DNA of 64,000 bases from the NCBI RefSeq assembly GCF_024055795.1, contig NZ_JAMXMY010000004.1, positions 62,001 to 126,000 on the forward strand, given 5' to 3'. This DNA is from Actinoallomurus purpureus. GTDB lineage: Bacteria; Actinomycetota; Actinomycetes; Streptosporangiales; Streptosporangiaceae. Below the pieces are notes generated by a model that was not told the DNA's origin, made no database searches, and saw nothing but the letters and a program-made list of their open reading frames with translations. Both the position numbers and the translations under genes were made by a program. Numbering within the stretch: position 1 is the first letter of the stretch; the number at the start of each line of letters is the position of its first letter. Of the stretch, positions 3,995 through 64,000 are shown in pieces.

Positions 3995-3995
3995 G

Positions 3996-25478: not shown

Positions 25479-28400
25479 ATGCGAACAGCTCGTGGTCAGC
25501 GGGCGACAGGCCCCTGCCGCGTCGATCCGGCCGACGTCGACGCGGGCGGCCGATCGGAGATCACGCCGGCCGAACCCGCTTGGCGCACATCGAGGTGGAG
25601 TGACGGGGCCGAGCAATCCTTCTGCGTCCAGGCAAGGGCCTACGACATTCCTCGTACCTCCGGGCAGCCGACGGCGAATGCGACCGTGGCGAGCCGGAGG
25701 AAGACCGTTCGCTGGGCCGACGCGGAAGGCGAAAGCGAGCGGGACGGTGAGAAATCTACCGCCGAGGAATCGGCGATGCGGTCCCCCGCGCTGGACACGG
25801 AGTCCGGTCCGGAGCGGACGGCGCCGCTCGTCGAGCTGCTGGCCGGCACGGATGTGGGTGTGGTCGGCGGCCGGCCGGTGGCGTTGTGGCTGCCGGGTGC
25901 GCCCGCCGATGGGTTGCGTTTCGATGAGGCGACGCTGGGGGCGCTGGGTGACCTGGTGCCGCCGCAGACCGTGTTCGTGATCGCCGCGGAGCGCGACGGT
26001 CGGGTGGTGGTCGGTGACCACCCGGTGTCGGCGGCGACATTGCACCGCACGATCGCCGCCAGGGCTCCGGGCATGCAGCCGTTCTTGCTGGTCCCGGGCG
26101 CGGCGGGGGTGGCCGAACCGCTGGCGCGAGAGTTCGACGGGCCGGTTCTGGCGGCCCCGGACGGCATGCGGCTCGACCTGGACAACGGCTTGACGTTGGA
26201 CACCGGCTTGACGTTCTTCCGCCCCAGCCAGGACGGGCCGGTGCCGGAACCGTTCCGGCTGCACGAACCCGGCATACCGGACGGCCTGCCGATCGCGGCC
26301 TCGCTGACCGCGGGCGCACGGGAAGTGCCGACGATCGACGCGCCGGTGACGGAGAGCCGGCCTCTGGACGGGATGGCCCGTTCCATCGGCGTGCCCCGTG
26401 CCGGCCTGCCGTACATGAGTGCGCTGCTGGCCGCGATCGGCTTCGAGATGGCCGTCCGAGATCAGACCTTCACCGAGAAACAGCAGGACGATCTGGTGCA
26501 GCGGCTGCTCGCCAACTACCCGTACCTGCTGGGCCGGAGTACGGACGACAACGCGAGCGGGCTGGTGGTCCCGATGGGGTCCATCGAGATCCTGATCACC
26601 TTCGATCCCCAGCGGCCACAACGCGTCGTGCGCAACCCGGCCGGTTCGTACACCGCGCCGTCGAAGCAGGCCGCTCCGGACGGTTCCTCCATGGCCGTGG
26701 GCACGATCAACGCCGCGTACGGCACCGGCGCGCACGGGGAGACGTACGGCGGGCAGACCGGCGCGACCCGCGGCAAGATCGGGTTCTCGTTCGGGATCGG
26801 CGGCCTGGCACCGCGTGTGCTCAACCTGATCAGAGTCGGCGGCTCGATCGCCGGGACCGCCAATCAGTCCAACCGGAGCACGACGGCCGTCAAGGACGCC
26901 GAGCGGGGCAAGGTCGAGGACGGCCGGATCGAGGCGGATCTGATCGCGTATCCGGAGGTGAACGTCTCCTACAAGATCCGCGAGCAGAGGAAGAACGAGC
27001 CGGTGCCCCGCTGGCAGGGCCTGCCGCGCCACGACATCCCGGAGTCGGGCAAAGAGGCGCTGCTGGTGTGGGTGCCCAAGCCGTACACCGAGCAGTCTCC
27101 GGCACCCACGACCACGGTCACCGCGACCGGCCCCGAGGTCGACAGACGCAGGGGGACGCTGCCGAGCAACTACTACGCATCGGGCCTCACCGACATCCCG
27201 CGACTGTTCGACGAGACCCTCACGGTCCTGCGCCGGCAGGGTCTGCGGCTGCCCGCCGGGAGCGTCACCCGCGAGGAACTGCTGCAGAAGCTGTGGAACC
27301 TGAACACCCACCTCGACAGTGCGGTCAACGGGCGGCAGATCGGCTACCAGATCACGCTGCACGACGACCAGGGCAAGAAGATCGCCATGGTGCAGGTGCA
27401 CAGCCGGCTGCTGAACCCAGCCGCGGCGCAGCAGGTCGGTGCGGTGAGCGACAAGGTGCACCTGGAGGACGTCCGCACCGCGATCGACGGCAGCAGCGGC
27501 GGCCACACGCTGACCAACTCCACCACGGCCGCCCTGAGCGTGGAGTTCGACCTGCTGCCGAACCCGGGCATCGAGGGTCTGGGCCTGAACCTCAGCGCCG
27601 CGGCGTCGTACAGCACGACCCGCACCGACACGCTGTCCGCGGGGCGTACCGGCCTGTGGGTCCTGGTGCCGCGGTACACCGGCCGCACCGCGGCGTACAA
27701 CGTCGAATTCGAGCACCACGCCACCGTGAGCGTCCTCGGCGGGCGGCGGGCCGAGCCGACGACGCCGGTCCGTGGGCGCGGGCTGGTGCGGATGCCGGTG
27801 AAGGCGGCGTTCGCGCACGGCTTCACGGTGGACCGGGCCACCCTGGAGAACCCCCCGGACGGGAACACCATGCCGTACCGGGACGACGCGGTCCTGGACT
27901 CCGGACGCCGTCCGCAGGACCCGCAGAGCAAAGACGTGCCGCTGCACGTCCAGGAGGGCAAGGGCGTCGGGATGGGCCTCGTCCGGGTGTCGGACGAGGC
28001 CGTCAGCAGGCTCCGCGGGATCGTCGAGAACGAGGTGAGCAGGTTCGGCTTCCTGCCACCGGACCAGGACGACCCGTTCGCCCGGCACCATTGGTACAGC
28101 CACGGCAACCGGCTTCGCCGGCGGCTGGACAACCGTGACCTGCTGAGGAAGATGATCTCCACGCAGGGTCTGGACTCCCACTACGACCAGATCCACCAGG
28201 ACGGGATGACCTTCACGCTCCGGCTCAGCAGCGGCATCGCCGGCACGGATCTCGACGTCGACTCGGTCAAGGTGACCGTCAAGGCCAGGCAGAGCGCCAC
28301 GAGCCCCCCGAGGTACCACCGGACCACGAACGAGTACCACACGGTGAACCTGGCGATGGGCATGGACACCACGGGGCAGAGCGTCAGCCGGTCCCGCAAG

Positions 28401-31400: not shown

Positions 31401-34190
31401 CAGCTGAAGCCGTCCCAGGACCAACCCCCGTACACCTGGAACCCCGACCAGCCCGGCAGCCGCGTCACCTCACTGAACCAGAACAGCGCCGGCACCGAGA
31501 ACTACCGCCGTGAGCAGCACGCCAAGGAGCAGGGTCCGGTCTACATGGTCCGGCTCCAGTTCCGTGGGCGGCTCCACGCGGACAAGTTCCAGCACCACAT
31601 GTTCCGCAAGCCGACGCTCAAGGGCCGGTTCCACAGCGACCCGATCAGCGGCGACGTGTACGCCGAGCTGTTCGAGGCCGAGGTCAACGAGCTGCGCGCC
31701 AAGATCGAGCAGGAGCGGGCCGACGCACGGCCACGCACCGAGCCCTGGCCGGACATGCGCCGGGCTCCCGCCTTCGACCTCGCCCCCCTGCTCACCGGCG
31801 CGGCCGAAAACCACCTGGAGGCCGCATGGGCCTACCAGCACGTGGCCCGCCAGATCCGTACCCAGACCGGCGGTGACCGGCCGGTCGTCCTCACCGCCGA
31901 CGACCGGACCCTCGCGATGCAGAGGTACCGCGCGGCGCTGTCGTGGGCGGTGGAGACCATGCGGGCCGACTTCGGGGCCGCCCGCGGAGCCGTCGGCGAC
32001 GACGTCGCCGAACCGGCGAACCGGCGGACCTATGAGACGCGGCTGGGCCAACTCCAGGAGTGGGAGCAGGGGAACCGGGCCGTCCACCCGGCGCAGCGCA
32101 TCGGCCCGAACGGGCAGCCCGCGAGGACACCCGACCTGGCGACGGCGATGAACCAGGACGTCGACGCGATGATCAGAGACGTCCAGGCCGCACGCGACAC
32201 CGTGAACGAGGCGATCGCGAACGCGTCGGCGCGCGACGGGCGTCCCCGCCCGTCGCTCCAGGTCCTGCCGGAGCTGCCGCCCGGGATATCGGTGCTCGGG
32301 CAGGACCCGGTGTACGTCGCTCGCGACGTGGCGCACGCCCTCGACACCCACGTGCGCGTCGACGTCCGGCAGGCCGGCGGCGCGATGCGGTCGACCTGGA
32401 TCGCCCCCGACGGCGGCGTGCACTCCTTCGACCCGGCCCGCGACCGGGTCGACGAGGATGGCAACCTCCACGTCTCCGACGAACGGGGCGAGCGCCCGTT
32501 CACCGCCGACCTCGCGTACCGGCACGGGCTGCTGTCGGACTGGCACCGCACCGACGTCGCCGCCTTCGCGCTCGACGACGCCGAGCTGGGCCGGCTGTAC
32601 AAAGACTCGATGGCGCGCCAGCAGACGTTCGAGCAGGCCGTCGCGGAGGAGATCGCCGCCCGCCGCGAACGGTTGGAGACGGTGCACCCGGGGATGTCGG
32701 AGCGGTTGCGGCACGCATACGAGGCCCACGAGTTCTGGCGGAGCGAGCTGGACTGGCGCAGCGAACGGCGCATTGAGGTCCGCGGGACCCAGGACGCGGC
32801 CACTGCGGGTGAAATCCTGGACCGCCTGCTGGAGTTCGCCCGGCCGGGCGAACTCCAGCGGCCATCGTCGCATTTCGTACGGCGGATGGGCGAGCGGCTC
32901 GACGACCTGACTTCGCTGGAACGGCTGGCCCGGTCGCCACGCGTCCGCCGTGCGTACCGGACCCGGTCGCCGGACACGACCGCCGCGACGATCGAAGACG
33001 AGCTCATCCAGGCCCGCTCGGGCGCCGTGTCGCTGGTGCTCTCGTCCGGGCGCCCGCTCGTGGCGGCGAACCAAGGCGATACGGTCCGGTGGTTCGACAC
33101 GTTGGGCCGGCCGGTGGGCCGGCCGGCCGGTGTGACGGCGTCACTGGACCTCAATCTGGACGGCGAGGTACGAAACCCGGTCGACGGGCTATCGAATCTC
33201 CGCCTCGGACAGGCGATCTTCCAGCGACTCCGGTCGTCCGCCGCCGCGTTGGCCAAGCGGGGAGGGACGTCCTCCTCGCGCGTGCCGCAGGCGCTGCTCA
33301 GCCAGGACCCGCCGCGGGTTCCCATGGGGCTGACCCTCACCGACGCGCACCTGTCGATGCAGGACGACGGGCGCACGGTCCCCCACGCGGGGCCCGGCCG
33401 TCCGCTGGCGGACTACGCTCCGGTCTTCTGGCTCATGCACGGCGCTCCGAACAATGGCGTCACGGTGGAAGACATCGTCGGCACCGACTGGACCAACGCG
33501 CTGGACTTCCTGACGGCCGACCGTGGCATGAGCCTGTCTCAGCGTGTCGAAGAGGAACTCAGTCGACCCGACCGCTTCGTCAGGACGAGAAGCGAACTGC
33601 CGGACGACCTGCGGAGCGGCACGTGGGTGGCGTTCGACGGCGACACCGCGACGGGAGCGGCGGTCGCGCTCGGCAGAGGGCGGTATCGCACGTACGTACC
33701 CGGGGCGGAGATCCGGAGCCTGAGCGCCGAGGAACTGCGGCAGGAGGCCGGCGCGTGGCCGACCTTCCTGATCGTCGCTCCCGATCAGCATTTTTCGCTC
33801 CGGCTCCCCTCGTCACAGCCTGTTTCTCTCCTCAGGTCGTCGAGCGGGGACGCCGGACCGGACGGAACGAGCGGGGCGAGCGACGCGTCGTCCATTCCCC
33901 ATCTGCACGCCACCGCCGTCGCCTCCCTGCGCAGATCGGGATCAGCGGGGGTCAGGCCGCCGAGCCCTGCGGCCGGTGAGCGTTCCCGTCCGGATCACCC
34001 TCGCGTCTTCCTGGAGGAGCCGCAAGCCGAGCCTGGACACGATCGGGCCGCCTCGACGCGCGTCCCGGAGACGGACGAGCGGGAGCCACAGCGAAAGAAC
34101 GCCGAGACCGATGACATCGGCCTGCAATACAGTAAATCGAGCTACAGCAAGGGGCCGTTCTGCGTCGAGGTCACTGTGATCTGGCGTTGA
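25479..34190 (+). CDS. Giant (2903-residue) beta-rich protein with DUF397-like motifs at both ends
   Basis: The family is not recognised. Near the N-terminus is WRTSRWSDGAEQSFCVQARA (W35, C49). At the C-terminus is YSKSSYSKGPFCVEV (Cys 2895). A globular domain with LLAGTDVGVVGGRPVALWLP follows the N-terminal motif, then a very long region of alternating beta strands and short helices resembling repeats of one fold. An anchor LPSNYYASGLTDIPRLFDE resembles LPPWY-type anchors in two other giants here. Two ~125-residue repeats (near 1330 and 1450) contain the pattern ALTRWQDGKLTLSGDTVARV. Residues near 2390 read YVARDVAHALDTHVRVDV. The ATG at 25479 has GGTGAG upstream and is supported by the N-terminal motif. 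Its stop overlaps the convergent gene at 34171. It is probably an ESX-linked effector or surface protein, by context only. Confidence 0.7.
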   Translation: MRTARGQRATGPCRVDPADVDAGGRSEITPAEPAWRTSRWSDGAEQSFCVQARAYDIPRTSGQPTANATVASRRKTVRWADAEGESERDGEKSTAEESAMRSPALDTESGPERTAPLVELLAGTDVGVVGGRPVALWLPGAPADGLRFDEATLGALGDLVPPQTVFVIAAERDGRVVVGDHPVSAATLHRTIAARAPGMQPFLLVPGAAGVAEPLAREFDGPVLAAPDGMRLDLDNGLTLDTGLTFFRPSQDGPVPEPFRLHEPGIPDGLPIAASLTAGAREVPTIDAPVTESRPLDGMARSIGVPRAGLPYMSALLAAIGFEMAVRDQTFTEKQQDDLVQRLLANYPYLLGRSTDDNASGLVVPMGSIEILITFDPQRPQRVVRNPAGSYTAPSKQAAPDGSSMAVGTINAAYGTGAHGETYGGQTGATRGKIGFSFGIGGLAPRVLNLIRVGGSIAGTANQSNRSTTAVKDAERGKVEDGRIEADLIAYPEVNVSYKIREQRKNEPVPRWQGLPRHDIPESGKEALLVWVPKPYTEQSPAPTTTVTATGPEVDRRRGTLPSNYYASGLTDIPRLFDETLTVLRRQGLRLPAGSVTREELLQKLWNLNTHLDSAVNGRQIGYQITLHDDQGKKIAMVQVHSRLLNPAAAQQVGAVSDKVHLEDVRTAIDGSSGGHTLTNSTTAALSVEFDLLPNPGIEGLGLNLSAAASYSTTRTDTLSAGRTGLWVLVPRYTGRTAAYNVEFEHHATVSVLGGRRAEPTTPVRGRGLVRMPVKAAFAHGFTVDRATLENPPDGNTMPYRDDAVLDSGRRPQDPQSKDVPLHVQEGKGVGMGLVRVSDEAVSRLRGIVENEVSRFGFLPPDQDDPFARHHWYSHGNRLRRRLDNRDLLRKMISTQGLDSHYDQIHQDGMTFTLRLSSGIAGTDLDVDSVKVTVKARQSATSPPRYHRTTNEYHTVNLAMGMDTTGQSVSRSRKLAAGVSLRGLYTFLRGAAMGVEIQRTVGAADSVGFLNNRPELLEYPGEVDEFTLTSDYEVGFEYKYSGRTGEIVQRPERTGEVGRPPEQTRNRLRKDRRPRQVRLPGQTAVVHLMPLGTAEQRGPVREGRAPDDLLDQGVGYFVDTTGLRELAGRALTDLTGPAGTADADIDTFAGTIGVRAHLREILKGEYTTDRLFDTGLFVDTLGALDISGEMHDVRFSGSSGDKFVKGDIKLALLENRLTDNNSFGIAWDQLDFAFGGGAGTAGLTGEADLNRRWQWNTSTSSGRTGAKELIQLDFNQVYAFTARLDLAVSARQEKHSKPAPIWTKRLVRERLDPRTVMFLLSEPEALKRYADDSVPISDAQLTDALTRWQDGKLTLSGDTVARVLTRWRTDLRTRTTQPAGALDTERAGRLRHANGFADALSRMHRTGSTPVRDADVRRDFNATFTRSTRLEEPRDSSGAVDMSGSQDLLDYAKGAVNLPDGRLIEAMNAWRNGDLTLNGDVVAEILARWMTTVPHLSDGTDDQDELVQLLYDLHSAGALPIRQAATRERFETVLPQERRPLPRPKTPLEHMELPEYLTREDPGGRMLGHSGMQTYRHDDGRTTYQIVKEQIEAVAPGMLAAGAEIWDRRGRVVGRMQGGVDALQAMLAQGRDVGMFEEFLSTNGHSFYLAHPSGWLLTDIVEINISSVLTSAPKVGEFVPNTGIEVYSHGYRSASTSKSKDGSQSLTTKLSAGGTDTYTGSGAGAAKISEGHHRGTTRAETGVTEQTVYDWSGHYLADFGEAMTVKVRRLRMSGRPLNNLLQRKFNRMTWHNRTSEVTVPGRLEIQVPRAIAEAGVIRGPSARRDLAALPKLPGNGFIAGTMIDDALPIAQKMLAQVFKPGAVARMFGAGGPKEESSRSLPILLSRLHLTNHLAEATGGSTYQVAEGLHMPGDADTRADLFLEGGLYDLQVIAPMKEGTGTGRYSKHQSGTTTFAGTDHVRLEGDYQVDGSVGPQLKPSQDQPPYTWNPDQPGSRVTSLNQNSAGTENYRREQHAKEQGPVYMVRLQFRGRLHADKFQHHMFRKPTLKGRFHSDPISGDVYAELFEAEVNELRAKIEQERADARPRTEPWPDMRRAPAFDLAPLLTGAAENHLEAAWAYQHVARQIRTQTGGDRPVVLTADDRTLAMQRYRAALSWAVETMRADFGAARGAVGDDVAEPANRRTYETRLGQLQEWEQGNRAVHPAQRIGPNGQPARTPDLATAMNQDVDAMIRDVQAARDTVNEAIANASARDGRPRPSLQVLPELPPGISVLGQDPVYVARDVAHALDTHVRVDVRQAGGAMRSTWIAPDGGVHSFDPARDRVDEDGNLHVSDERGERPFTADLAYRHGLLSDWHRTDVAAFALDDAELGRLYKDSMARQQTFEQAVAEEIAARRERLETVHPGMSERLRHAYEAHEFWRSELDWRSERRIEVRGTQDAATAGEILDRLLEFARPGELQRPSSHFVRRMGERLDDLTSLERLARSPRVRRAYRTRSPDTTAATIEDELIQARSGAVSLVLSSGRPLVAANQGDTVRWFDTLGRPVGRPAGVTASLDLNLDGEVRNPVDGLSNLRLGQAIFQRLRSSAAALAKRGGTSSSRVPQALLSQDPPRVPMGLTLTDAHLSMQDDGRTVPHAGPGRPLADYAPVFWLMHGAPNNGVTVEDIVGTDWTNALDFLTADRGMSLSQRVEEELSRPDRFVRTRSELPDDLRSGTWVAFDGDTATGAAVALGRGRYRTYVPGAEIRSLSAEELRQEAGAWPTFLIVAPDQHFSLRLPSSQPVSLLRSSSGDAGPDGTSGASDASSIPHLHATAVASLRRSGSAGVRPPSPAAGERSRPDHPRVFLEEPQAEPGHDRAASTRVPETDEREPQRKNAETDDIGLQYSKSSYSKGPFCVEVTVIWR

Positions 34191-34226
34191 TCATGACCTG
34201 GGTCACGGCGACCTCGACGCAGAACG
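34156..34226. repeat. 17-bp perfect inverted repeat across the convergent giant-gene ends
   Basis: The arms CGTTCTGCGTCGAGGTC (34156-34172) and its exact complement (34210-34226) encode the same F-C-V-E-V motif on opposite strands. The 37-bp middle contains both stop codons. Transcripts from either side could form a hairpin, so it may also serve as a bidirectional terminator, although no T-run follows. Confidence 0.75.
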
Positions 34227-37200
34227 TCCCCTCGCCCTCCGAGGAGCCCCCGGCGCTGTAGCTGCTGGGCGTCCACTTAAGGCCAGCGGCATCGACGCCG
34301 TCCGAGGTCTCGTCGCCGGCGGCGGCCACGAGGTGGCGGTCGATCGAGCCGTCGGCGTCGCGGATGAGAAGTTCGACCGGGACGCCGGCGTCCGCGGCCA
34401 GCCGCCCTGCGGTCACGGTGGCGGCCGCCGGGTGCTCGGCCGGAGCCCACAGTCGCAGCGTTCCGGCGGCGCGCACGGCCTCCGCGCCACCGGCGTTCTC
34501 GACGATCCGGGCGGCCGCCCCGGAGGGCAGGGTCCCATCCTGCGCCCATTCGGCGTCGAGCGGGGCCCGCTCGAGGGGAAGGTCCGGGTCCTTGGCGAGA
34601 AGCCGCGCCACGACGGTGGCGGGCAGCATGCCGGCCAGGCCGTCCACGGTCGCGACCCTGAGCCGATGGCCGTACGGGCCCGTGACGTGGTACTCGGCGT
34701 CGAACACGTAGTAGTCGAAGTCGCCGTCGCGCTGGCGGTTGGACTCGACGAAGTCACCGGCCGAGCTCTTCGTGACGCGGACCGTCGTGCCGTCTCGGTC
34801 GGCACCGACTCCCGGGTCCAGCAGTGGCCGCTCCGCGTCCTTCTTCAGCGGATGGCCGGCAGGGTGGCCGAGGTCGAACTCGATACCGCCGCTCGAACGC
34901 CGGTGCGTCTCGTTCACGCGGTCCGGTTCGGCGGCGTGCTCGGGGAAGTTGAGGGCGGAGTATCGGCCCCGGCCGAGCCACCGCGCCCGCGACGGCACGA
35001 GCTGGACGGTGAGGTGGTCACCGTTGACCAGCGGGATGCTGTACGTTCCGGCGAGCAGCGCGGCGATGTTGGCGCGCAGGTTGCGTTCATCCAGGGCCAG
35101 GTCGAGGGTGAGGCCGTCCTGGGTGCCCGGCGCGAACTCCTCCACGATCGGCTCGACGCCCTGCTCCACCGCCTCATGGTCGACGCGGCGCCACGGGACC
35201 GCCGCGAGCGGCGCCCATATCGGCAGCCTCTCGGCTCCCGGCACCGACAGCGCTTGCACGTGCTCGGCCAGTGCCGTCGCCAACGCCGAGGGAGCAGGTG
35301 CCGTCGTTCGGGCGACGCCCTGTGCCGGCGCGAGCGTCACCGGTGGTGCCACGGGGCCGGCGGCCGACGCACGGGAGGCCGTCGTCGTCAGGTGCGTGGG
35401 GACGAGGACCGTAGCCCGGCCGGGCACCTGCTCCGTTACGGCCGAGGGCCGGTCGGCCGGGAAGAAGCGCTGCCACAACCGCCGGCTCTCCCCTCGTGAC
35501 AGCACCTCGAGGAGCTCGGGCGCGAGGGAGAGAAGCCGTCCGGCCTTGCGGGTGAGCTCGTCCGGCGAGTAGCGGTAGAAGATCTCGATGTTGTAGGTGA
35601 CCGTGTGGGTGAACTCCTGCGAGGTGTCCTGCGCGGTGGCGCGACGGATGTCGCGCGCGGTCGAGTTCGTGCCCACCTTCGAACGGCCACCGGACTCGTA
35701 GGCGCCGCTCACCCCACCCGCCGGCCGCAGGCCGTACGGCGCGCCCGCCCACCGGCCGTGGACAAAGCCGGACACCCGGCCGGTGCGTCCGCGGCTGCGG
35801 GCCTTGCCCTTCTGGATGAACGCCTGTCCGCCGGTCGTCACCTTGACGTCCGGCCGGGGCCGCTCGTACTCGACCGACTGCTCCGTGGCCGTGACCCGGA
35901 TGCCGGTGTGCATGGTGCCGCTGGTGCGCGGGGACATCTTCATGTGGTCCCAGGCGCCGTGGTCGGGCCAGAGCTTCGCCGGCATCGTGAAGATCCGGCG
36001 GATCCCGCCGCGGCGCGCGATGCCGTACTGGGCGCGGACCGCCTCCTCGGAGAACGCCGTCTCCACCGCGCGCAGCAGCTCCGGATCGACGCGCTCGCCG
36101 AGCATCCGCCGAATGGTGTCGCCGACCCCGCCGGCGTCCACGTCCTCCACGTACGCGACCGCCAGCGCGAGGTTCTTCTCGAGGTAGCCGCGCTCGCCCT
36201 GCACGACGGGCCGGTCGTCGCGGGCGGGAACGGTCAGGCCGTCGCCGGCGGGAACGGTCACACCGTCGCGGGCGGGAACGGGCAGGCCGTGGTCGGCCGC
36301 GCGCACGTACGGCGCGAGGATCTCCATCCCACGGTCGATCCTGACGTGCCGGGTGACCGTGTAGGAGAAAGGTGTGGGCGTGGCTCGCTTCTTTTTCAAC
36401 ACGTTCTGGTCCTTGGGCCGCTCGGGAATCCGAGACCGGCGACGCCAGCGGCGGTACTCCAGCGTGTACACCGGGTCGGCGCCGAACATCTCGCCGTCGC
36501 CGGAGTACGTGCCGAGGTTCAGGTCCAGGCCGCCGCCCAGGTCGCCGTCGTGCCGGCCCCACGACGCGCCCCCGCTGCCGATGACCCCGCCCGAGATCTG
36601 ACTGCTCGACTTCTGGCTGGCCGTGCGTGCGCCCTCCTGGGGCGGGGTCCCGCCGATCCGCCCGACGCCGCTCAGGCCGGCGGCAGCGTCGAGCGTGTCG
36701 GTGACCTCGTTCTCCTCGCCGAAGCGAAGGTCGGCCTCGGTGTACTGCTCCAGCGTGCCGCCCTTGACCGTCTTGTCGTGACGAGCGTTGAAGGTCCGCA
36801 TGCGGATCCTGACCTCCTGCTGCCACCCGTCCGCGGTCGGCGGCAGCGGAACCACCAGGCCCCTCTCGCGCATCGTCGTCCGGGCGTTGGCCTCCAGGAA
36901 GGTCTGCGTGCCGGCCCGCAGGATCCGCTCGGCGACTCCGTACCGGCCGCCGGACGGCACGATCTTCCCCAGGACCTCCTGGAACGCGTCCGATTTCGTC
37001 CCGGCCCAGGACAGGTGGTTGTGCTGGGCCACCATCGCGGCCAGTTGCGTCGATATCTCGCTGACGCCGATGAGGCCGACCTGGATGCCGGACAGCCCCT
37101 TCTCGCTGAGGTCGAACTCCTTACCCTGCCCGCCGGCGAGCTCCTGGACGCCCTCATCTGTCAGCGGGCCGTTCTCCACCGTGACCCGGCCGACCTCCAG

Positions 37201-40964: not shown

Positions 40965-41172
40965 TCACAAGTGACCACACCGCAGGTGTCCGCGCAACGG
41001 GGGAACCTCAAGACCGGCCTCCCGTACCGCGTGACCGAGTACGTCATGTTCGGCGGCGAACCATGCCATCGCCTCGTTGTAACGCCCGGGCCGCTCCGGA
41101 CGGACGCCGGCCACCGCGGGCGGCGGCTGGATCGGGGTCCGGTGCGATTTCAGGGCGACCTGTGCGTTGAAG
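40965..41172 (-). pseudogene. Frameshifted C-terminal end of the SARP regulator
   Basis: In the frame shifted by one base relative to the gene 41044-43104, the minus strand reads FNAQVALKSHRTPI, then GVRPERPGRYNEAMAWFAAE and HDVLGHAVREAGLEV, ending at a TGA at 40965. This is the conserved AfsR-type segment that normally follows LLQHY. The natural frame is therefore lost by a single extra base near 41172 (in CAGCAGCTTCAAC). It could be a real mutation, a sequencing error or, less likely, a programmed shift. Confidence 0.75.
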
Positions 41173-49802: not shown

Positions 49803-49855
49803 GGTTCGGCTTTGACACGCTGCCATATTAATTGCATCGAAAAATCATGCCCACC

Positions 49856-54550: not shown

Positions 54551-54581
54551 GAAGGCCGACCGGTGGTACCGGTCGGCCTTC
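54551..54581. terminator. Bidirectional terminator hairpin
   Basis: A perfect 14-bp stem GAAGGCCGACCGGT / ACCGGTCGGCCTTC has a 3-nt loop. It sits between the DUF742 gene (plus) and a convergent hydrolase gene (minus). It is symmetric and serves both directions; there is no T-run on either side. Confidence 0.75.
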
Positions 54582-54626
54582 ACGAGCAGAGGGGTCAGGA
54601 TCCGCCGTTGGGCGGCCGAGGGGACG

Positions 54627-55508: not shown

Positions 55509-55615
55509 GGTGACTCCATGTTCTGCGGGGTGGAGGGTGAGAAGAAGACGGAACTGCCTTCGCATTGGGGGCGCCACCCGGCGTGTGAGCACGGACAGCG
55601 CCCCAGATCGCCGGG

Positions 55616-56067: not shown

Positions 56068-56266
56068 TGTCTTTTCTCCTTCATAGATGTTCGCCGCCGA
56101 CCGAACGTCGGCGGCGAGGCGAGTATGAGACGTACGACTGGAGAGCAAGTGCAGGGATTCTTGACGCCGCATTGGGCCGGCGATTCATCAGCGAGCTCTC
56201 ATACAACCAGCCGCCTGGCCTGAGCCCGGGTGCAGCGAGCTCAGGCGAGTACGGCCTCACGGTTGG

Positions 56267-57091: not shown

Positions 57092-57432
57092 TCTTGACCT
57101 TGCTTTCTGTCGGCGGAAAACACACATGCCATGGGCGTGAGCCCGGCGATGGAAGTCGACTCACGCCGAGTCTGCGATCCACGATGCTCTCGTATTCACG
57201 CGACACTAACTCAAGCTAGGGTGATCCACTTGATGACGAGTGGACACTTTATGGATTCCGCATCGGCACAGAGGTCCGAACGCTTCGGTGGGATCCCAGG
57301 CGTCCTCCGGGTCGGACACCTGCCCGACGGCGGCGACAGGACAGCGTGATGTGACGGTGGCGCTTGGTGACGACCGCTCCGTCCGCCAACTGGTGGGCGG
57401 AGTGTCGATGGGCCAGACGGCGAAGTTCGGGC
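57092..57432. other. Intergenic region upstream of the chloroperoxidase-type hydrolase
   Basis: No gene is supported here. The stretch lies between the 3' end of the 1254-residue gene and the start of the hydrolase gene. It holds an inverted repeat (57225-57244) in its AT-richer centre. Confidence 0.4.
57225..57244. promoter_or_regulatory. Inverted repeat TCCACT-8 bp-AGTGGA, candidate operator
   Basis: Six-bp perfect arms lie about 135 bp upstream of the hydrolase start. The size suits a MarR/TetR/HxlR dimer site, but no such regulator gene is adjacent. Confidence 0.3.
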
Positions 57433-60400
57433 CTAGCTATTCGGCGACGACGTTCCGCGGGACGGGGTCGGACCTCCGAAGCGCGTGCGGCTTCGCTTGC
57501 CGGTCCCGCCGATCGAGGTGACCTCGACGCAGTACTTCTCGCCGTTGTTGTCGGCCATGCTGTGGGTGCTCTTCGTCCACTGCAGCGCTTTGGGCTCGAG
57601 ATCGGCGGTCCCCTCAGCCTTGCCGCTGGGGTGGTACATCATGAGCCCGACCTCGACGGCGTTGGCCGGCAGCGCCGCCAGGCCGCCGATCTGGCCGTCG
57701 AGGAACACCACGCCGACGTCGGTGTGGGTGACGTTGAAGAGGTGCGGGTCACCCTGGCGAGCGCCGATGAAGACCACGCCACGGCTGCCAGGCTCATCGG
57801 CGATGCGGGTGATGATGTCGTCGTAGCCGTCGACCTGCACCCAGTGGCCCCCGTACCGGTCCTGGAGCAGGTCCAGCCCGTACCAGCCGCCGGTGCCGGA
57901 AGGCGGCACCCGTACCTGCGCGTCCCCGTTGAGCATGTAGTCGACGGCCACGACCGCCTGGTTGCAGTTCATCGTGTTGCCGGTGGGGTTCAGTGCGTGC
58001 AGCACCGGATAGCGCTCCGCGACGAACCTGGCCAGCTTGGCCGCCACCGCCCCCTCCTCAAGGGCGGAGACGCTCTGGTTGATCGACGGCTGCGTCGTGA
58101 CCCCCGGGACCGGACGGTTGATCCCGGCCCATGGGCCGTCACCACGCCTGGGCGTCACCACGTCTGTATTCCGCGGAAGCCGCAACCGGGCGACCACCCA
58201 AGACCGGTCACCATCACCCGCGGTGGACGGGGGAACCGGCAACGACCGGCCTCCCCTCATCGGCGTCGGTCGGAATGGAACAGGCTGGAACGAAACCCGC
58301 CCCATCGGCACCCCGCGTCGGATGCCGTAAGTTCGAATACCGTCGCCGGCGCTCGCACTCCGGTATACCCCGGAACGACCGGGGCCGGCCTGCTGCGAAC
58401 GGCCACCGTGCCGATACGCGCTCACCGGCACCGGCTCCGGCACCGACACCGGCGCGACCGACACCCACACGGGACGCCCGGCACCATGTCGTGGTGCGGA
58501 CGTATCGAGCGACCGCGCCCGCGTCTGGACCGCGACCACCGCCGGGTCCATACCGCGCATCGAAAGCTCTCCGTAGATCAGCAGCCGCACAGCGCCGGCC
58601 ACGATCTCCCCCGCGGGGACGCTACGGCCGATGCGGAACAGCCGGCGGAACAGCCCGTGGGAGGCCACATCGCCATCAGGGCTCTCCACGCGCACGCGCA
58701 GACGCGACCCTCTCCTTGCCTGGTCGGCGACGTGCGCCGCAAACCGATGCAGGTCGGCACGCTGACCGGGCAGTAGGCGGCGCTGCCTGTCGGCGAACAC
58801 CACCAGCAGATGGTCCATCTCCCGGCGCCGCAGATCGTCGATGATCCCGTTGACTCGGTGCATAAGGCCGACCGCCCCAGAGCGGCTGCGATTTCTCGGC
58901 CCTATGGTTAGGGAGACCTGCATCCTGAGAGCCTCGAGCGCGGCTCTCAGCGGCCTCGCCTGCCAATCACCGGACCGGGAGAACGAATGAAGGGCTAGCA
59001 CCGTGTCGGCGATGATGTTGCTGGTCACCTCGTCTCGGGTTATCGGAGTACGGAGCGACTCGGCCTGTCCGTCGACGACCTCCTCCAGGAGTTCGCGAAC
59101 CTGTGACACCGGGCCGCCGTCCCTCGGCAGACCGCTCAGATGGCCCACTGCGGCGTTCAACGCCTCGGTGAATTTTTGGCCTTTCGGGTTTTGTTCGTTC
59201 AGGGCAAGCTTTTCCCTGTTTGCATAAGCCAGCTGCGCGAAGTCGGCGACGGCCCGGTACTTTTCTTCGGCCTCATCGATGGAGAACCACCGCTTACCAA
59301 GGTTACGCCACTCCACGACAATGAGGGGATGCGTGAGTCGGCCGTCGTTCGTGTCGGCGCTGTCGAAGTTCGTCCGGACGTTCATGGCGTCCGCTTGGTC
59401 GACGTGGACTCGTCGCCGGTGCCTCGGCTGCAACATGTTGTTGACGTAGTCGTCCAGGGTCAGTTCGTCCTGGTACTGCAACGGATATTTAAAGATGTCG
59501 AGGGCGGGAAGATTCTGCCGAATGCGCTGTTCTTTGTGACGCCGAATATCTTGAGCGAAGTCATATTCGATATATTCTCGCAGTCGCGTTTTGATGGGGC
59601 GGGCATTCTTGTAGATATATTCTCGCGCTGCGACGGGAAGCGCTTGCAGGACGCCCGAGAATGAGGTGCGCAATGTCGCATGAACATTGTTCTTCGCTCG
59701 GCCGCCGGGATTTATTAGGTAGGTGTGGACTTCAGCATAGGCGTGTGAGGCCAAGAGCTCCATGGCCGAGGCGAACAGACTGACTGCCGGCGTATAGTCC
59801 AGCGCCACCACCGCATACCTGTCCACCGAGGTGTCGCTCTTGATCCGAAATTGTATGAAGTCGCGGGTGACGGACGCAGCGAATCCCAGGCTCGATGCCA
59901 GGTATCTCTGCATGAAGGGAAAGCCACCGTTATGGCGCGCAGCGAATCGCTGAAAAGCCGGGATGCTTTCCCCGGGCAGGCCTACCGATATCTGCGGGGT
60001 GCCCCACTGTGTGCCCCAGGGGCCAGGCACAATGGAAAGTTGAGCTGACTCCCGAAAGAATCGCCGCCCGGGCGCGGGTGGGAACAGGTCCAGCAGAGAG
60101 GTCCCTGGCCGGCCGGGCCCGGCGTCACCACCGTGGGGCCGTGCCGTGCGTAGGATCCGCAGAACCTCCCGGATGCTCCGGTAACCCTGCTCGAGTGACG
60201 GCAGGTTGGTCTCCTCCGGCAGGATGACGCCGACAGGGGGTTTGTTCACTATCTCAACGATCATGACCGTTTGCCTGGTCACCCTTCCCACGCGGGCGGC
60301 GAGCGCCGCTTCTTGCGACGGGAAGTAACGTCCGCCGGCGACAACCACCTCCCAGCTGTCGGTTATCAGCTTGATCCCCAGATTGTCGTCCTCCATGAGG

Positions 60401-61197
60401 ATGGTTTCGTGGTCGAGCGGCACGCCGTTGCGACCATGCACGATGAAGCCGACTTCCAGTTCCACGCCCATGGCCTTGTACTTCAGGTCACGCGACGGGT
60501 CCACCACCGCGTCCACGGTTCTCGCCACGGAGACCAGGTCTTCGGCCAGGGGCACCGCGCGGCCCGACGAGTCGACGACGATGACTCGCGTCCCGATCGA
60601 GGGCGCCATCGGCTGCCCGGTGACCGGGTTGGTCCAGCCCTGCACTATTGCCGGGCTGACCCGTCCGCCCTCAGTCTCCTGGGTCTCGATCCGAAAGACC
60701 GTTCCGTCCTCATTGCGCAGGACGAAGCCGTGCCGGTTCTGGTCACCTGGTGGTGAGGTGAGAACGAACGCGGCCGCCCCGTGGCCGAGCTCTTCCAGCC
60801 GCCGTATCACGATCTCGAGCGAGCTCCCCACCGGCTGCCAGACGCCACCCACGGCCGAGGCCAGGGCGTCTTGGTGCCGGCCGGTGCCCAGCGCGGAATC
60901 ATCGCGCATGACCCGAGGTGATTTGTAGAAGTCGGCGCGCACAGACTCCATGCGGATGACACAGTCGACGGAATTTCCCTCGAACGGCGGGAGGACCTTC
61001 TTCAGCCGTTCATTCAGCCTCGTCGCTGTATCGCTGCGGTCCGCGCCCGCCGCGGTGAGGCTGAACCGGCCATCAGGGTGACGAATGGCGGCCGAGGCCT
61101 GGACACACGCGTTGTTCCCCGCCGCAGTGCAATAACGTGACGTGCGCCAAGCGGCGAATCCACCATTGACGCCGCGGCCCAGCGAGATGATCGACAC
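57433..61197 (-). CDS. Papain-like glutamine-deamidase toxin (Tox-PL) with amidoligase-like domain and DUF397-like ends
   Basis: The protein has 1254 residues from the GTG at 61197 (GGGAAGG upstream); a GTG at 61254 is in frame. The N-terminal motif is WRTSRYCTAAGNNACVQASA (W17, C31). Residues ~240-631 are the amidoligase-like domain: G244-V-E246-L-E248, IVEIVNKPP, TPQISVGLP, LTLDDYVNNML and E629-W-R631. A basic, disordered tract follows. Residues ~1060-1190 are a Tox-PL papain-like domain with the triad C1078 (NTMNCNQAVVAVDYM), H1152 (GDPHLFNVTHTD) and D1167 (VVFLDGQIGG). Such domains deamidate glutamine in target proteins. The C-terminal motif is WTKSTHSMADNNGEKYCVEV (C1223). It is a likely secreted or delivered effector; no immunity gene is recognised. 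Confidence 0.8.
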   Translation of the reverse strand: MSIISLGRGVNGGFAAWRTSRYCTAAGNNACVQASAAIRHPDGRFSLTAAGADRSDTATRLNERLKKVLPPFEGNSVDCVIRMESVRADFYKSPRVMRDDSALGTGRHQDALASAVGGVWQPVGSSLEIVIRRLEELGHGAAAFVLTSPPGDQNRHGFVLRNEDGTVFRIETQETEGGRVSPAIVQGWTNPVTGQPMAPSIGTRVIVVDSSGRAVPLAEDLVSVARTVDAVVDPSRDLKYKAMGVELEVGFIVHGRNGVPLDHETILMEDDNLGIKLITDSWEVVVAGGRYFPSQEAALAARVGRVTRQTVMIVEIVNKPPVGVILPEETNLPSLEQGYRSIREVLRILRTARPHGGDAGPGRPGTSLLDLFPPAPGRRFFRESAQLSIVPGPWGTQWGTPQISVGLPGESIPAFQRFAARHNGGFPFMQRYLASSLGFAASVTRDFIQFRIKSDTSVDRYAVVALDYTPAVSLFASAMELLASHAYAEVHTYLINPGGRAKNNVHATLRTSFSGVLQALPVAAREYIYKNARPIKTRLREYIEYDFAQDIRRHKEQRIRQNLPALDIFKYPLQYQDELTLDDYVNNMLQPRHRRRVHVDQADAMNVRTNFDSADTNDGRLTHPLIVVEWRNLGKRWFSIDEAEEKYRAVADFAQLAYANREKLALNEQNPKGQKFTEALNAAVGHLSGLPRDGGPVSQVRELLEEVVDGQAESLRTPITRDEVTSNIIADTVLALHSFSRSGDWQARPLRAALEALRMQVSLTIGPRNRSRSGAVGLMHRVNGIIDDLRRREMDHLLVVFADRQRRLLPGQRADLHRFAAHVADQARRGSRLRVRVESPDGDVASHGLFRRLFRIGRSVPAGEIVAGAVRLLIYGELSMRGMDPAVVAVQTRARSLDTSAPRHGAGRPVWVSVAPVSVPEPVPVSAYRHGGRSQQAGPGRSGVYRSASAGDGIRTYGIRRGVPMGRVSFQPVPFRPTPMRGGRSLPVPPSTAGDGDRSWVVARLRLPRNTDVVTPRRGDGPWAGINRPVPGVTTQPSINQSVSALEEGAVAAKLARFVAERYPVLHALNPTGNTMNCNQAVVAVDYMLNGDAQVRVPPSGTGGWYGLDLLQDRYGGHWVQVDGYDDIITRIADEPGSRGVVFIGARQGDPHLFNVTHTDVGVVFLDGQIGGLAALPANAVEVGLMMYHPSGKAEGTADLEPKALQWTKSTHSMADNNGEKYCVEVTSIGGTGKRSRTRFGGPTPSRGTSSPNS

Positions 61198-61381
61198 GGT
61201 TGGCCTTCCCGGTGACCAGAGCAGACGGGCGACGCTTCCGACCTTCCGGGGCACCGTACACTTTTGGGCTCATCGAGTGACTGGCGCGTCACTGTAGCGG
61301 ATCTCTCCGCTGGCGTCTGTGACGCCCCTGTGGCCACCCCTTCGATGGGGCGTCGTCGGGGAACAGCGCCCAAGGCCCCGG

Positions 61382-64000
61382 TCACCGGCCCACCGCCGGC
61401 ACCAGGACGACGACTGCGACAGAAACGCACGCCTCCGGTTCGTTCGGGCGCCCCGGCAGGCTGTGCGTGCTCTTCTTCCAGTCGAGAGGTTCGGACCCGG
61501 CGGCCTTGGCCATGACCTGCCCTGGCCGGTCCACGAACGGTGCCTCATCCGTACCGGTGGTGATGCGGGACTCGTCGGCCGGGGTTTCGGTGGTACGGAG
61601 CAGCAGGTCTCCGACGACCCATCGGGTGCCGGAGGGGCCGCGTACCTCCAGTACGGCGACGGCGCGGATACGGTGGCCGGTGTGTCCGGAGCCGTCGGCG
61701 CCTTCCTTCGGGGTGCCGATGCGCAACAGTTCGCGGCGCTGGCTGGAGAAGTTGGAGATCTGGCCGAAATGCTCAGTGCCACCGAGGAGGGGGATGGACG
61801 GGCCGCCGCGGTCGGTCCCGTCGGATTTCAGCGGCGAACCACCGAAGGTCAGCGAGAAGGCGGTGGACTTGTCCGTCTGGCTGATGAACCCGTCCGTGGA
61901 CAGCTCGACGCGGTCGATGGCGACGTCTTTGCTGGTGGTCTCCTGACGGGGGGAGTACAAGGTGACCTTGATCGAGGTGCCTTTGCCGCCGCGACGCCCG
62001 AGGATGGGGGCGGTGGCGGCGGGCTCGAGCAGGGTCAGCCGGTTGCTGGCGACGAGTTGGTTGAGCCGCAGGAACATACCCTCGGCCGACTGGGAGGTCT
62101 GTGGGGCCAAATCCTGTTCCAGCGACGGGTCCACATTCCGTAGTGCCTGGCCCAACTGCCGTATCCCGCCGAAGTCGTAGATCTGGAACGGCCGTGAGGG
62201 GACCCACTGCGGGCCGGAGAGCAACCCGCGCGCATCAGCGGGGACCTCGTCCGGGCCGATCTGTATGACGTATCCGCCCGGTGTGGGACCGGGGGTGACG
62301 GTCGGGTCGAAGGCATACAGGCCGGGCTGGACCGATGCCGCGCGGTAGCCGCCGTCATCCGGCGCCTCATCGGCGTCGAACCGCAGACTCACCGACGCCG
62401 GCTGCCAGCCGGTCGCCTGACTGACGGGACGTGGAAGGTGCTGGAGTACCGGGTCGAGCAGGTTGAGGATGCGCGTGGCCCGCCCGGCCCATACGAGACC
62501 GTTGAGCCCGGCGCCGACCAGGCGCACCAGCAGTGCCTCGTCCAGCGGACGGGAGCTGACGATCCACGCGTAGGCGTACGGCACCTCGTTGAACTCGACG
62601 CTGTTGACGGTACGTTTCCAGGTCCGCAGCTCGCGGGCGGAGGTCTGGAGGTCGGTCGTGGTGCGGTTACCGGACAGGCGCAGGGTCGGCCGGCCCTGGT
62701 TGCCCCTGACCTGGCCCAGCGGTGCGAAGTCCATCTCGTGACTGGTGGTCCGGGTGGTGCTCACCCCGGTCGCGCCGGGCACCTTGAGCGCCGCGCCGTC
62801 ACCGTTGGAGCGGCCGAAGACGTTGTCCACACCGGAGTTCGGATCCACCATCCGGCCGCGTATCCCCGCCAGGTCGACGCCCGGGGCGGGCCGGGCGGTG
62901 AACGCCACCTCCACCAGCCGGGGCCCGAGCCAGGAGCGGTGGATGAAGTGGAAGGCGGTGTGGCCGTTCGGTCCAGCGTTGGGCAGGGTCCGCAGACCCA
63001 GCGTGGAGGTGTGCTCGTTGATCCGCGTCAGCACATTGCGCAGATAGGTGGCGTGACCGGGCCGGGTCACTCCCGGAGCCTGCTCCTCCACCGCGGCGAT
63101 CACGGCGTTGTGGAGGGCGTTTCTGCCGCCTTGCAGGTGGACTTCGGTAACCGCGCCCGCACCCATGGCGCCGCCGCCGTCGATGTACCACGGGGGCAGC
63201 ATCCGGTTCCGCGGCCGGCCTTCGGACAGCGGGGGGAAGTCGCCTATGGCCAGCAGTTCGGGATGGTTGCGCAGATCGTTGTCGACGAGTAGGAATTCCA
63301 GCCCGTCGGGGGCCTCCACCATGCGGGTGCGTTCCAGGCTGGGGCCGGGACGCAGCGTGCCGGCGACGATGTTGCCCAACCCCCGGCGGACGGTGACGGC
63401 GTAGACCACCTTCGCGGTGAACCGGTGGGCCAGCGTGGTGTCTTCGGTCGTCACCCGGAACGCACCGGTGTTGTCGTTCACCACCGAGCTGTCGGTCGTG
63501 GAGGAACCGAACTGATACGTGCCCGCAGGGTTGAAGGACCGGTGCGCGGTGCCGTACTGACCGGCCACCGCCCCCGCGAGGTGATGCCCCGCGGTGAGGG
63601 AGTCGGTGGTCATGGAGAAGTTGGTGGACTGCAGCCACCGCTCGCTGTCCAGCTTCGGCGGCTGCGGCAGCAACCGGACGTCGGTGATGTACCCCGTCAC
63701 CTCGACCGTGACGTCGGTTCCCGCGATCGCGCCGGCCGTGCCGCCGCCCTCGACCACGTAGGAGTCACGGAAGATACGCAGCGCATTCGCCGACAGGTGC
63801 TGGGGGGACAGCGCGTTCTGGTGTACCTGCTCGGTCGCCGACTCCCCGTTCGCGGCCGGCTCCCCCACCGCGACGTGCCGCACGAACCGCCACGCGGCCA
63901 CCGCCCCGGTCCACTTCGCCGTTTCCCAGGCGGCGGTCTTGGCCACGGACGTGGCCGCGTCGGTGAGGGCCTTGGCCCACGAAGACGCGGCCGGGGCCTC
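61382..64000 (-). CDS. Giant beta-rich protein with C-terminal DUF397-like motif (5' end outside window)
   Basis: The frame is open to the right edge; about 872 residues are visible and the start lies beyond. The visible part is beta-strand-rich and contains LPPWYIDGGGAMGAG, close to LPPWYVRQGGFGDGG in the 2145-residue protein. Then come a helical stretch (NALHNAVIAAVEEQAPG) and more strands. The C-terminal motif is WKKSTHSLPGRPNEPEACVS, with the Cys 15 residues from the end. No enzyme motif is recognised. It lies upstream of the Tox-PL gene on the same strand with about 185 bp between, so both could share a transcript. It belongs to the same set as the 2903- and 2145-residue giants. Confidence 0.65.
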   Translation of the reverse strand, partial: EAPAASSWAKALTDAATSVAKTAAWETAKWTGAVAAWRFVRHVAVGEPAANGESATEQVHQNALSPQHLSANALRIFRDSYVVEGGGTAGAIAGTDVTVEVTGYITDVRLLPQPPKLDSERWLQSTNFSMTTDSLTAGHHLAGAVAGQYGTAHRSFNPAGTYQFGSSTTDSSVVNDNTGAFRVTTEDTTLAHRFTAKVVYAVTVRRGLGNIVAGTLRPGPSLERTRMVEAPDGLEFLLVDNDLRNHPELLAIGDFPPLSEGRPRNRMLPPWYIDGGGAMGAGAVTEVHLQGGRNALHNAVIAAVEEQAPGVTRPGHATYLRNVLTRINEHTSTLGLRTLPNAGPNGHTAFHFIHRSWLGPRLVEVAFTARPAPGVDLAGIRGRMVDPNSGVDNVFGRSNGDGAALKVPGATGVSTTRTTSHEMDFAPLGQVRGNQGRPTLRLSGNRTTTDLQTSARELRTWKRTVNSVEFNEVPYAYAWIVSSRPLDEALLVRLVGAGLNGLVWAGRATRILNLLDPVLQHLPRPVSQATGWQPASVSLRFDADEAPDDGGYRAASVQPGLYAFDPTVTPGPTPGGYVIQIGPDEVPADARGLLSGPQWVPSRPFQIYDFGGIRQLGQALRNVDPSLEQDLAPQTSQSAEGMFLRLNQLVASNRLTLLEPAATAPILGRRGGKGTSIKVTLYSPRQETTSKDVAIDRVELSTDGFISQTDKSTAFSLTFGGSPLKSDGTDRGGPSIPLLGGTEHFGQISNFSSQRRELLRIGTPKEGADGSGHTGHRIRAVAVLEVRGPSGTRWVVGDLLLRTTETPADESRITTGTDEAPFVDRPGQVMAKAAGSEPLDWKKSTHSLPGRPNEPEACVSVAVVVLVPAVGR

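What the first reader, a model, noticed from the sequence alone, without database searches (positions are those of the whole stretch)
25479..64000. DUF397-like W..S..S...CV motif caps the ends of six large proteins
Seen: C-terminal copies in all six large proteins, for example WRVSGYSKGPYC (9.9-22.8 kb gene), YSKSSYSKGPFCVEV, WKFSSLSDGQLCVEVAEV and WTKSTHSMADNNGEKYCVEV. N-terminal copies occur in the four complete ones without an ESX domain, for example WRTSSRSGAAFCVQARA and WRKSAHTAGACVEAA. Known: DUF397 is a ~60-residue actinobacterial domain, usually a stand-alone protein next to XRE/Scr1 regulators, with a W-(R/K)-x-S-(S/T)-x-S...CVEVA start. Inference: here half-domains act as terminal tags, perhaps for folding, pairing of the two ends through the single Cys, or recognition by the ESX machinery. 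I know of no description of DUF397 as a paired end cap on giant proteins.
Basis: partly seen in the sequence, partly recalled or inferred. Interest (0 to 1): 0.88.

Follow-up and report, generated by a model that had tools for sequence, protein, structure and literature searches.

The report
Half-DUF397 end caps on giant toxins
Giant toxin-like proteins near a type VII secretion system carry a short, cysteine-bearing half of a small regulatory domain at one or both ends, which looks like a docking tag for proteins that lack their own export signal.

Summary
All six window proteins end in the first half of DUF397 (PF04149 positions ~1-30 of 55). The four complete ones without an ESX domain also start with it, and so does the sixth beyond the window edge. 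One window protein passes Pfam's cut-off; reversed and shuffled proteins give no profile hits. In six Actinoallomurus genomes I count 36 proteins (602-9,558 aa, varied bodies) capped at both ends. Six complete giants are capped at the C end only, and all six start with a WXG/ESX-type domain. One internal profile hit was seen. N-caps (WRTS..ACVQA) and C-caps (W..SS..CV[SE]VAV) are different types. Each brings a cysteine into proteins nearly free of it: 15 of 36 bodies (780-3,281 aa) have none. At three of five cap-bearing EccC loci, DUF397 second-half ORFs lie beside eccC. Best reading: docking tags, analogous to PKS/NRPS docking domains, that join signal-less toxins to a WXG carrier bearing only a C-cap. 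The partner of a cap, the direction and any disulfide are inferred, not shown; 23 of 28 cap-bearing stretches held no EccC.

The parts
9899..22777 (-). G1: 4,292-aa ESX-type giant ('carrier'); WXG-like N domain (local profile, not Pfam), C-cap only; aa ~2929-3341 homologous to the G4 and G5 bodies
9950..9994 (-). C-cap of G1 (WRVSGYSKGPYCVQV)
25479..34190 (+). G2: 2,903-aa double-capped protein ('cargo'); zero Cys between the caps
25581..25634 (+). N-cap of G2
34128..34172 (+). C-cap of G2
34171..40608 (-). G3: 2,145-aa double-capped protein; only two Cys, one in each cap; convergent with G2
40543..40587 (-). N-cap of G3
34210..34275 (-). C-cap of G3
45841..48384 (+). G4: 847-aa double-capped protein; predicted body fold nearest to the actin-crosslinking domain; zero Cys between the caps
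45925..45966 (+). N-cap of G4
48313..48357 (+). C-cap of G4
57433..61254 (-). G5: 1,273-aa double-capped protein with a papain-fold toxin domain (PF15644, 58 bits) before the C-cap; PF04149 over cut-off
61087..61155 (-). N-cap of G5
   Evidence: C44:123087-123155
57520..57579 (-). C-cap of G5
61382..64000 (-). G6: C-terminal 872 aa of a 1,874-aa double-capped protein; its N-cap lies past the window edge (C44:128896-128964); only two Cys, one in each cap
61418..61480 (-). C-cap of G6
1..1319 (-). 5' part of eccC (the gene continues to C44:59246; EccCa and EccCb models over cut-off on the part in L001)
1316..4045 (-). beta-helix plus AAA ATPase protein
3996..5342 (-). EccD (TIGR03920 over cut-off)
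5724..6101 (-). WXG100 protein (over cut-off)

Best explanation
The caps are terminal docking tags made from the first (beta1-beta2) half of DUF397. Giant toxin-like proteins without a detectable export domain ('cargo') carry an N-type cap within 64 residues of the first possible start and a C-type cap near the end. WXG-domain giants ('carriers'), which a type VII machine should recognise, carry a C-type cap only. Cargo is thus recruited to, and strung behind, a carrier, much as PKS/NRPS docking domains order megasynthases; the lone cysteine of each cap could lock the pair as a disulfide after export. The DUF397 second-half proteins encoded next to eccC at three loci may hold or deliver the caps. 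Shown: positions, two cap types, mutual exclusion of N-cap and WXG domain, cysteine distribution, partial EccC linkage. Inferred: the cap partner, the C-to-N direction, the disulfide, and co-export.
For: (a) N-cap and WXG domain exclude each other. There are 36 double-capped proteins (33 plus 3 added). A local WXG profile matched 8 ORF starts at E<=1; the 5 capped ones among them are all C-only. All 6 complete C-only giants have a WXG-type start: PF25547 over cut-off in 2, below cut-off in 1, none in 3; 4 of the 6, including those 3, match the local profile strongly, one of them (E 1.8e-39) outside its training set. (b) N- and C-caps are distinct types: residue C+3 is Ala in 28 of 39 N-caps and 2 of 43 C-caps (p 7e-11); W+1 is Arg in 34/39 vs 12/43; C+2 is S/N in 1/39 vs 25/43. 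(c) Cysteine: the 36 double-capped proteins hold 143 Cys in 79,389 aa, 80 of them in the caps; bodies have 43 in 76,740 aa (0.56 per 1,000), 15 of 36 bodies none, against 6.97 per 1,000 in 136 other ORFs of 600-2,900 aa. Seven of 33 proteins have exactly two Cys, one per cap; 3 of 6 complete carriers (2,126-3,647 aa) have exactly one, in the C-cap. (d) Five of 6 complete carriers have an N-capped protein in the same fetched stretch. In G006:C55 a C-capped carrier gene is followed directly by an N-only gene. (e) Caps persist between homologues only 31-43% identical (4 of 8 pairs compared). (f) Precedents: the DUF397 protein BldB hetero-oligomerises with paralogues in two-hybrid tests (PMC10294661, passages); [quoted passage not shown]
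Against: No pairing or secretion was tested. AlphaFold2 gave the cap regions mean pLDDT of about 26-41 and says nothing about their contacts. Uncapped ORFs over 2,900 aa are just as Cys-poor (12 of 14 at 0-0.45 per 1,000, one at 0.66, one at 6.13), so Cys avoidance is not caused by the caps. Only 5 of 28 cap-bearing stretches hold an EccC, though stretches are about 3-140 kb. One carrier (G006:C33) has no capped neighbour within the 60 kb held, and the G001:C13 locus has double-capped proteins but no visible carrier. One internal cap occurs in a 6,059-codon ORF of G005. Gene order and strand do not suggest an ordered chain.
Confidence: 0.4

Rival explanations
1. Split-domain adaptor: caps are completed in trans by DUF397 second-half proteins encoded beside eccC (beta3-beta4-alpha), which act as chaperones or adaptors that bring cargo to EccC, as EspG does for PE/PPE.
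For: Directly downstream of eccC in G000:C44 lie two small ORFs that match PF04149 over its cut-off, but only at positions 18/19-55. Homologues lie at the same place in G006:C27 (phmmer E 1.7e-28 and 1.6e-36) and, fused in one 136-codon ORF, in G001:C13. One of the two types has no room for a first half. None beside eccC in the 20 other EccC loci of the tree (Fisher p 0.005, computed with 19 others). Two partners for two cap types.
Against: Absent at the capped loci C11 and G007a. Related half-2 ORFs also occur elsewhere in the genome (C2 near a contig end, C50). The second type has extra N-terminal strands and may be a complete, divergent DUF397. Only three loci, two of them found through caps. 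Several of the 20 other loci are short or at contig ends. A full-length DUF397 lies about 15 kb from eccC in G005:C37, beside an XRE gene.
Confidence: 0.2
2. Caps are themselves export signals read by this EccC subtype, replacing the WXG domain; no partner protein is needed.
For: N-caps were found only where the WXG domain is missing. Among EccC-anchored loci, 3 of 3 with flank at 80% EccC identity or more (own window included) are capped; 0 of 4 at 64-67% (two of these end just past eccC), 0 of 1 at 52% and 0 of 10 distant controls are.
Against: WXG carriers also have a C-cap. Two cap types and an invariant Cys are not needed for a signal. G001:C13 EccC branches outside the group of capped and uncapped sisters. 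Most cap-bearing stretches hold no EccC.
Confidence: 0.13
3. Intramolecular staple: N-cap and C-cap of the same chain pair and form a disulfide that closes the protein.
For: 36 proteins have both caps; 7 of 33 have exactly two Cys, one per cap.
Against: C-only carriers (6 complete) and N-only ORFs (3 complete: G006:C55, G006:C17, G005:C49) have no second cap in the chain.
Confidence: 0.12
4. Regulatory sensing: caps mimic the small DUF397 partners of XRE/DUF5753 regulators and let the cell sense or repress the toxins.
For: In this genome small ORFs of 1-3 tandem half-units follow XRE regulators at several loci. XRE homologues lie in 3 of 28 cap-bearing stretches (G000:C50, G001:C11b, G006:C34c), in the last right next to a capped gene.
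Against: No XRE homologue (E<=1e-6, six queries) in the fetched stretches of C44, C11, G007a, G006:C27 or G001:C13. N- and C-caps have diverged from the peptide type WRKSSRS..CVEVA. Does not explain the WXG exclusion.
Confidence: 0.06
5. Relic: caps are leftovers of mobile DUF397 peptide genes captured at gene ends, without function.
For: Half-unit peptides are abundant (103 PF04149 matches in the genome, many of them half-length).
Against: Signature residues conserved at both ends of differing bodies and between 31%-identical homologues while adjoining linkers diverge; two position-specific types.
Confidence: 0.04

Closest known systems
DUF397 / BldB-like proteins (PF04149), partners of XRE regulators
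   Same: Cap sequence is the first half of this domain (W..SS.S...CVEVA); BldB hetero-oligomerises with paralogues (PMC10294661, passages read)
   Different: Known members are mostly <=100-aa stand-alone proteins or WhiJ fusions (same passages); here only the first half, at one or both ends of proteins of 600-9,600 aa
ESX/T7SS polymorphic toxins with WXG/LXG trafficking domains (PMC3482391, passages read)
   Same: EccC/EccD/WXG100 locus, giant multidomain proteins, papain-fold toxin domain PF15644, WXG-type start on carriers
   Different: Most capped proteins have no detectable WXG/LXG domain; it is apparently replaced by an N-cap
[quoted passage not shown]
   Same: Short tags at the ends of giant proteins, N and C tags assembling chains in order; that the first protein has only a C tag is recalled
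   Different: Unrelated sequence; toxins, not synthases; pairing here is inferred
EspA, ESX-1 substrate with a single Cys (PMC2891827, passages read)
   Same: One cysteine, disulfide dimer formed after type VII secretion
   Different: Homodimer of one Esp protein; no DUF397 mentioned in the passages
VMAP-ternary conflict systems with linked DUF397 genes (PMC7159879, passages read)
   Same: DUF397 proposed there to multimerise, perhaps through its conserved cysteines
   Different: Separate DUF397 genes, no terminal caps described in the passages

Membership tests
DUF397 (PF04149) | Profile score over the curated cut-off | tested here: inconclusive
   Over cut-off in 1 of 6 window proteins (29.7 vs 24 bits) and in 2 of 14 other capped proteins scanned (28.8, 27.9); the rest below it or not listed
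DUF397 (PF04149) | CxE / CV.V motif of strand 2 | tested here: met
   Cys invariant in 35 of 35 aligned caps, W, S and V at 90% or more; the residue two after C is Q in 28, E in 27 and S in 21 of 82 caps, so the E is not kept
DUF397 (PF04149) | Second half with the RDS motif and C-terminal helix | tested here: not met
   Best stretches stop at profile position 20-30 of 55; so caps are half-domains, not full members
ESX/T7SS polymorphic toxins | Type VII machinery in the locus | tested here: met
   Window locus: EccC, EccD and WXG100 over NCBIfam cut-offs. Over all cap-bearing stretches only 5 of 28 hold an EccC
ESX/T7SS polymorphic toxins | WXG/LXG-type N-terminal trafficking domain | tested here: not met
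   For double-capped proteins: none matches the local WXG profile, and none of the 18 scanned whole with Pfam shows a WXG/LXG/PPE match. The 6 complete C-only carriers do have one
ESX/T7SS polymorphic toxins | Known toxin domain | tested here: met
   PF15644 papain-fold toxin over cut-off in G5 and in 5 of 14 other capped proteins, below it in 1 more
ESX/T7SS polymorphic toxins | Secreted and toxic | not testable with these tools
   needs experiment
PKS/NRPS-type docking domains | Specific binding of a C-terminal tag to an N-terminal tag | not testable with these tools
   AF2 of G4 uninformative for the caps
XRE-DUF397 toxin-antitoxin/regulator pair | XRE gene adjacent | tested here: not met
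   none in the C44, C11, G007a, G006:C27 or G001:C13 stretches; present in 3 of 28 cap-bearing stretches

The most novel reading that the evidence does not exclude
A combinatorial 'toxin train': half-DUF397 couplers, an N-type and a C-type with one conserved cysteine each, let any number of signal-less giant toxins link head-to-tail behind a WXG-domain locomotive and be exported and covalently locked as one mega-complex by a dedicated EccC subtype, with DUF397-half chaperones encoded beside eccC.
Probability: 0.25. Interest if true: 0.95.

Novelty: new variant of a known kind. Interest (0 to 1): 0.8.

Why it matters
It would give a widespread but poorly understood domain (DUF397; a median of 19 paralogues per bldB-containing actinobacterial genome, PMC10294661 passage) a concrete protein-docking role, show how toxins without a WXG/LXG domain can belong to a type VII system, and define a two-ended tag that can be tested with short peptides. 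The cysteine pattern (in 15 proteins no Cys at all between the caps, and a conserved one in each cap) makes the disulfide idea directly testable.

Tried and rejected
Rejected: chance motif (0 profile hits in reversed and shuffled proteins; relaxed-regex background inside large ORFs 8 in 408,755 residues). Rejected: caps only in this locus; they recur in G000:C11 and C50 and in G001, G004, G005, G006 and G007. Rejected: caps as a unit1/unit2 split of the tandem half-unit peptides; the first and last units of 6 tandem peptides show no such split. Tried without result: AF2 of G4 for cap contacts; Pfam of G1-G4 and G6 beyond weak matches, and NCBIfam of G2-G6. The search for related loci gave 5 loci: in 4 both ends of the ORF lie outside, in the fifth (L154) the visible C end has no cap.

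Limits of the census. The genome search scores only part of its candidates (150 per genome, of up to 959; 43 per genome), and the listings are cut, so caps can be missed. Genus restriction: among 200 family genomes, listed cap matches at E<=1e-6 in frames of 600 aa or more were only in genus g1 (5 genomes); the listed matches in the 45 genomes outside it were in frames of at most 255 aa. Weaker copies elsewhere are not excluded. Rows dropped: the GC filter left out four capped ORFs (G0, G006:C60 and G006:C28 with both caps, G005:C4 with an N-cap at a contig edge); they were added, giving 36 double-capped. In 10 of the 33 double-capped ORFs, and in two of the three added, the C-cap rests on the relaxed regex, not on the profile. 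My note 1 says the regex found 10 copies; it found 9. Proteins are taken from the first possible start codon, so lengths before the N-cap are upper estimates.

Literature: the DUF397 search listed 25 papers, with toxin and secretion 9; passages were read in four, none describes terminal caps; the others were seen only as listing lines and starts of abstracts. I claim only that I found no description in these searches.

Full report
Where it is. The window is contig C44:62001-126000 of a 9.25-Mb genome. Its genus is Actinoallomurus, inferred because genus-mate G003 has a contig of the same length (338,064) as A. iriomotensis NZ_BSTJ01000014 and G004 one of the same length (20,759) as an Actinoallomurus MAG contig. 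The left end of the window holds a type VII (ESX) locus: eccC (EccCa and EccCb models over cut-off), EccD, a WXG100 protein and a beta-helix/AAA protein.

Check of the observation. A six-frame scan found the motif at 11 sites in 64 kb: 9 at ends of the large genes and 2 on antisense frames. A tenth copy, at the N end of 57433-61254, was found by PF04149 and by profile. All six proteins have the C-terminal copy. The four complete non-ESX ones have the N-terminal copy, and so does the sixth once its gene is followed past the window (1,874 aa). PF04149 is over cut-off in one window protein, and only its first ~30 of 55 positions match. DUF397 is described as four beta-strands plus a helix, with CxE in strand 2 and RDS towards the end of strand 3 (PMC7159879, passages), so a cap corresponds to strands 1-2.

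Census. Caps were searched in the own genome, in three genus-mates, and in four genus-mates plus G135; these searches score only the best 150 candidates per genome. Listed hits in frames of 600 aa or more were fetched, together with EccC-anchored and body-anchored loci. Of 238 coding-like ORFs of 600 aa or more, 43 have a cap profile hit of at least 9 bits: 33 capped at both ends, 7 C-only, 2 N-only, 1 internal only. In 10 of the 33 the C-cap was found by a relaxed regex whose internal background is 8 in 408,755 residues. Three more double-capped ORFs, dropped by a GC filter, bring the total to 36 in six genomes, the window's own included. Six of the 7 C-only ORFs are complete; the seventh starts beyond a contig edge. 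Of the two N-only ORFs one ends at a contig edge and one (G006:C55, 963 aa) is complete; two shorter complete N-only ORFs (390 and 428 codons) were also seen, and no C-cap remnant was found just downstream of these three. A profile built from own-genome caps alone finds 24 N-terminal, 21 C-terminal and 1 internal hit in 201 ORFs of the other genomes; on all 238 ORFs reversed or shuffled it finds none. In 200 genomes of the family, listed matches at E<=1e-6 in frames of 600 aa or more occur only in this genus.

Carriers and cargo. All six complete C-only giants begin with a WXG/ESX-type domain: PF25547 over cut-off in two, below it in one, none in three; four of the six, including those three, match a local profile of WXG-like starts, one of them (E 1.8e-39) outside its training set. 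None of the N-capped ORFs matches that profile. So the N-cap stands where the WXG domain would be. Giants without caps also exist, up to a 25,518-codon ORF with a WXG100_2 start. Five of the six carriers have an N-capped protein in the same fetched stretch; G006:C33 does not.

Two types of cap. N-caps read W-R-[TK]-S...A-C-V-[QE]-A; C-caps read W-x-x-S-S...C-V-[SEN]-V-A-V-[VI]. Residue C+3 is Ala in 28 of 39 N-caps and 2 of 43 C-caps (Fisher p 7e-11; the sequences are related, so the p-value is only indicative), and two other positions differ in the same way. Among seven proteins of the window cluster compared, only G1, G4 and G5 share a clear body module, with one marginal G2/G6 match; across genomes some bodies are homologous. 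In four of eight homologous pairs the bodies are only 31-43% identical and the caps are still recognisable while neighbouring linkers diverge.

Cysteine. The 36 double-capped proteins hold 143 Cys in 79,389 aa: 39 in N-caps, 41 in C-caps, 43 in 76,740 aa of body (0.56 per 1,000) and 20 outside the caps at the ends; 15 bodies have none. In 136 other ORFs of 600-2,900 aa from the same stretches the rate is 6.97 per 1,000. Seven of 33 proteins have exactly two Cys, one in each cap; three of six complete carriers (2,126-3,647 aa) have exactly one, in the C-cap. Against a cap-specific reading: uncapped ORFs over 2,900 aa are equally Cys-poor (12 of 14 at 0-0.45 and one at 0.66 per 1,000; the last has 6.13).

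Link to EccC. Loci anchored on EccC alone: the three with flank at 80% EccC identity or more are capped (G000:C44 itself, C11, G007a). Four at 64-67%, the 52% one and ten distant controls are not; two of the four end just past eccC, and a 76% locus ends 1.4 kb after eccC. In a tree of 25 EccC, four capped loci form a clade (support 1.0), and the fifth, G001:C13, branches before the uncapped sisters, so caps were lost, gained twice or moved. Over all 28 cap-bearing stretches only these 5 hold an EccC. Beside eccC in C44 lie two small ORFs that match only the second half of PF04149, over cut-off; homologues lie at the same place in G006:C27 and, fused, in G001:C13. C11 and G007a lack them.

What the bodies are. 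G5 and 5 of 14 other capped proteins carry papain-fold toxin PF15644 over cut-off, one more below it. AF2 of G4 (8-row alignment, mean pLDDT 57.7) gives a better middle part whose nearest solved structure is the actin-crosslinking domain of a VgrG/MARTX toxin (E 8e-9, TM 0.47-0.50 by target but 0.23-0.24 by query, 13-14% identity); G1 and G5 hold homologous modules. The caps are not resolved.

Interpretation. The distribution (C-tag alone on the proteins with an export domain, both tags on most others, distinct N and C types, a conserved Cys in each tag) fits docking tags better than a purely intramolecular staple, a bare export signal or a regulatory mimic. Direct support is absent: no binding, secretion or disulfide data. 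BldB is reported to hetero-oligomerise (PMC10294661) and the only Cys of EspA to form a disulfide dimer after type VII secretion (PMC2891827), so two of the inferred steps have a precedent. The docking-domain analogy rests on the start of an abstract (PMC8251938) and general knowledge.

Noticed in passing
G003:C14:71784-148337 (L098-L102); G001:C2, G006:C10, G000:C6, G007:C1:2852439-2898764: Uncapped giant ORFs of 25,518, 21,284, 18,762, 16,792 and 15,442 codons in Actinoallomurus; the first has a WXG100_2-type start by Pfam, the others begin similarly by eye.
   Followed up: partly
window 45841-48384, also 12698-14062 and 58885-60504: Shared body module whose predicted fold is closest to the actin-crosslinking domain.
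   Followed up: partly
window 34171-34190: Convergent capped genes G2 and G3 overlap at their 3' ends; a homologous overlapping convergent pair lies in G006:C27:63854-79343.
   Followed up: partly
G000 loci L003, L004, L007, L009, L010, L011: Tiny ORFs made of 1-3 tandem first-half DUF397 units, several right after XRE regulators: a shrunken form of the XRE-DUF397 partner.
   Followed up: partly
G005:C47:3-18179: One cap copy lies in the middle of a 6,059-codon ORF, as if two capped proteins had fused.
   Followed up: no
window 41044-43104: AfsR/SARP-type regulator (BTAD + NB-ARC) inside the capped cluster.
   Followed up: no
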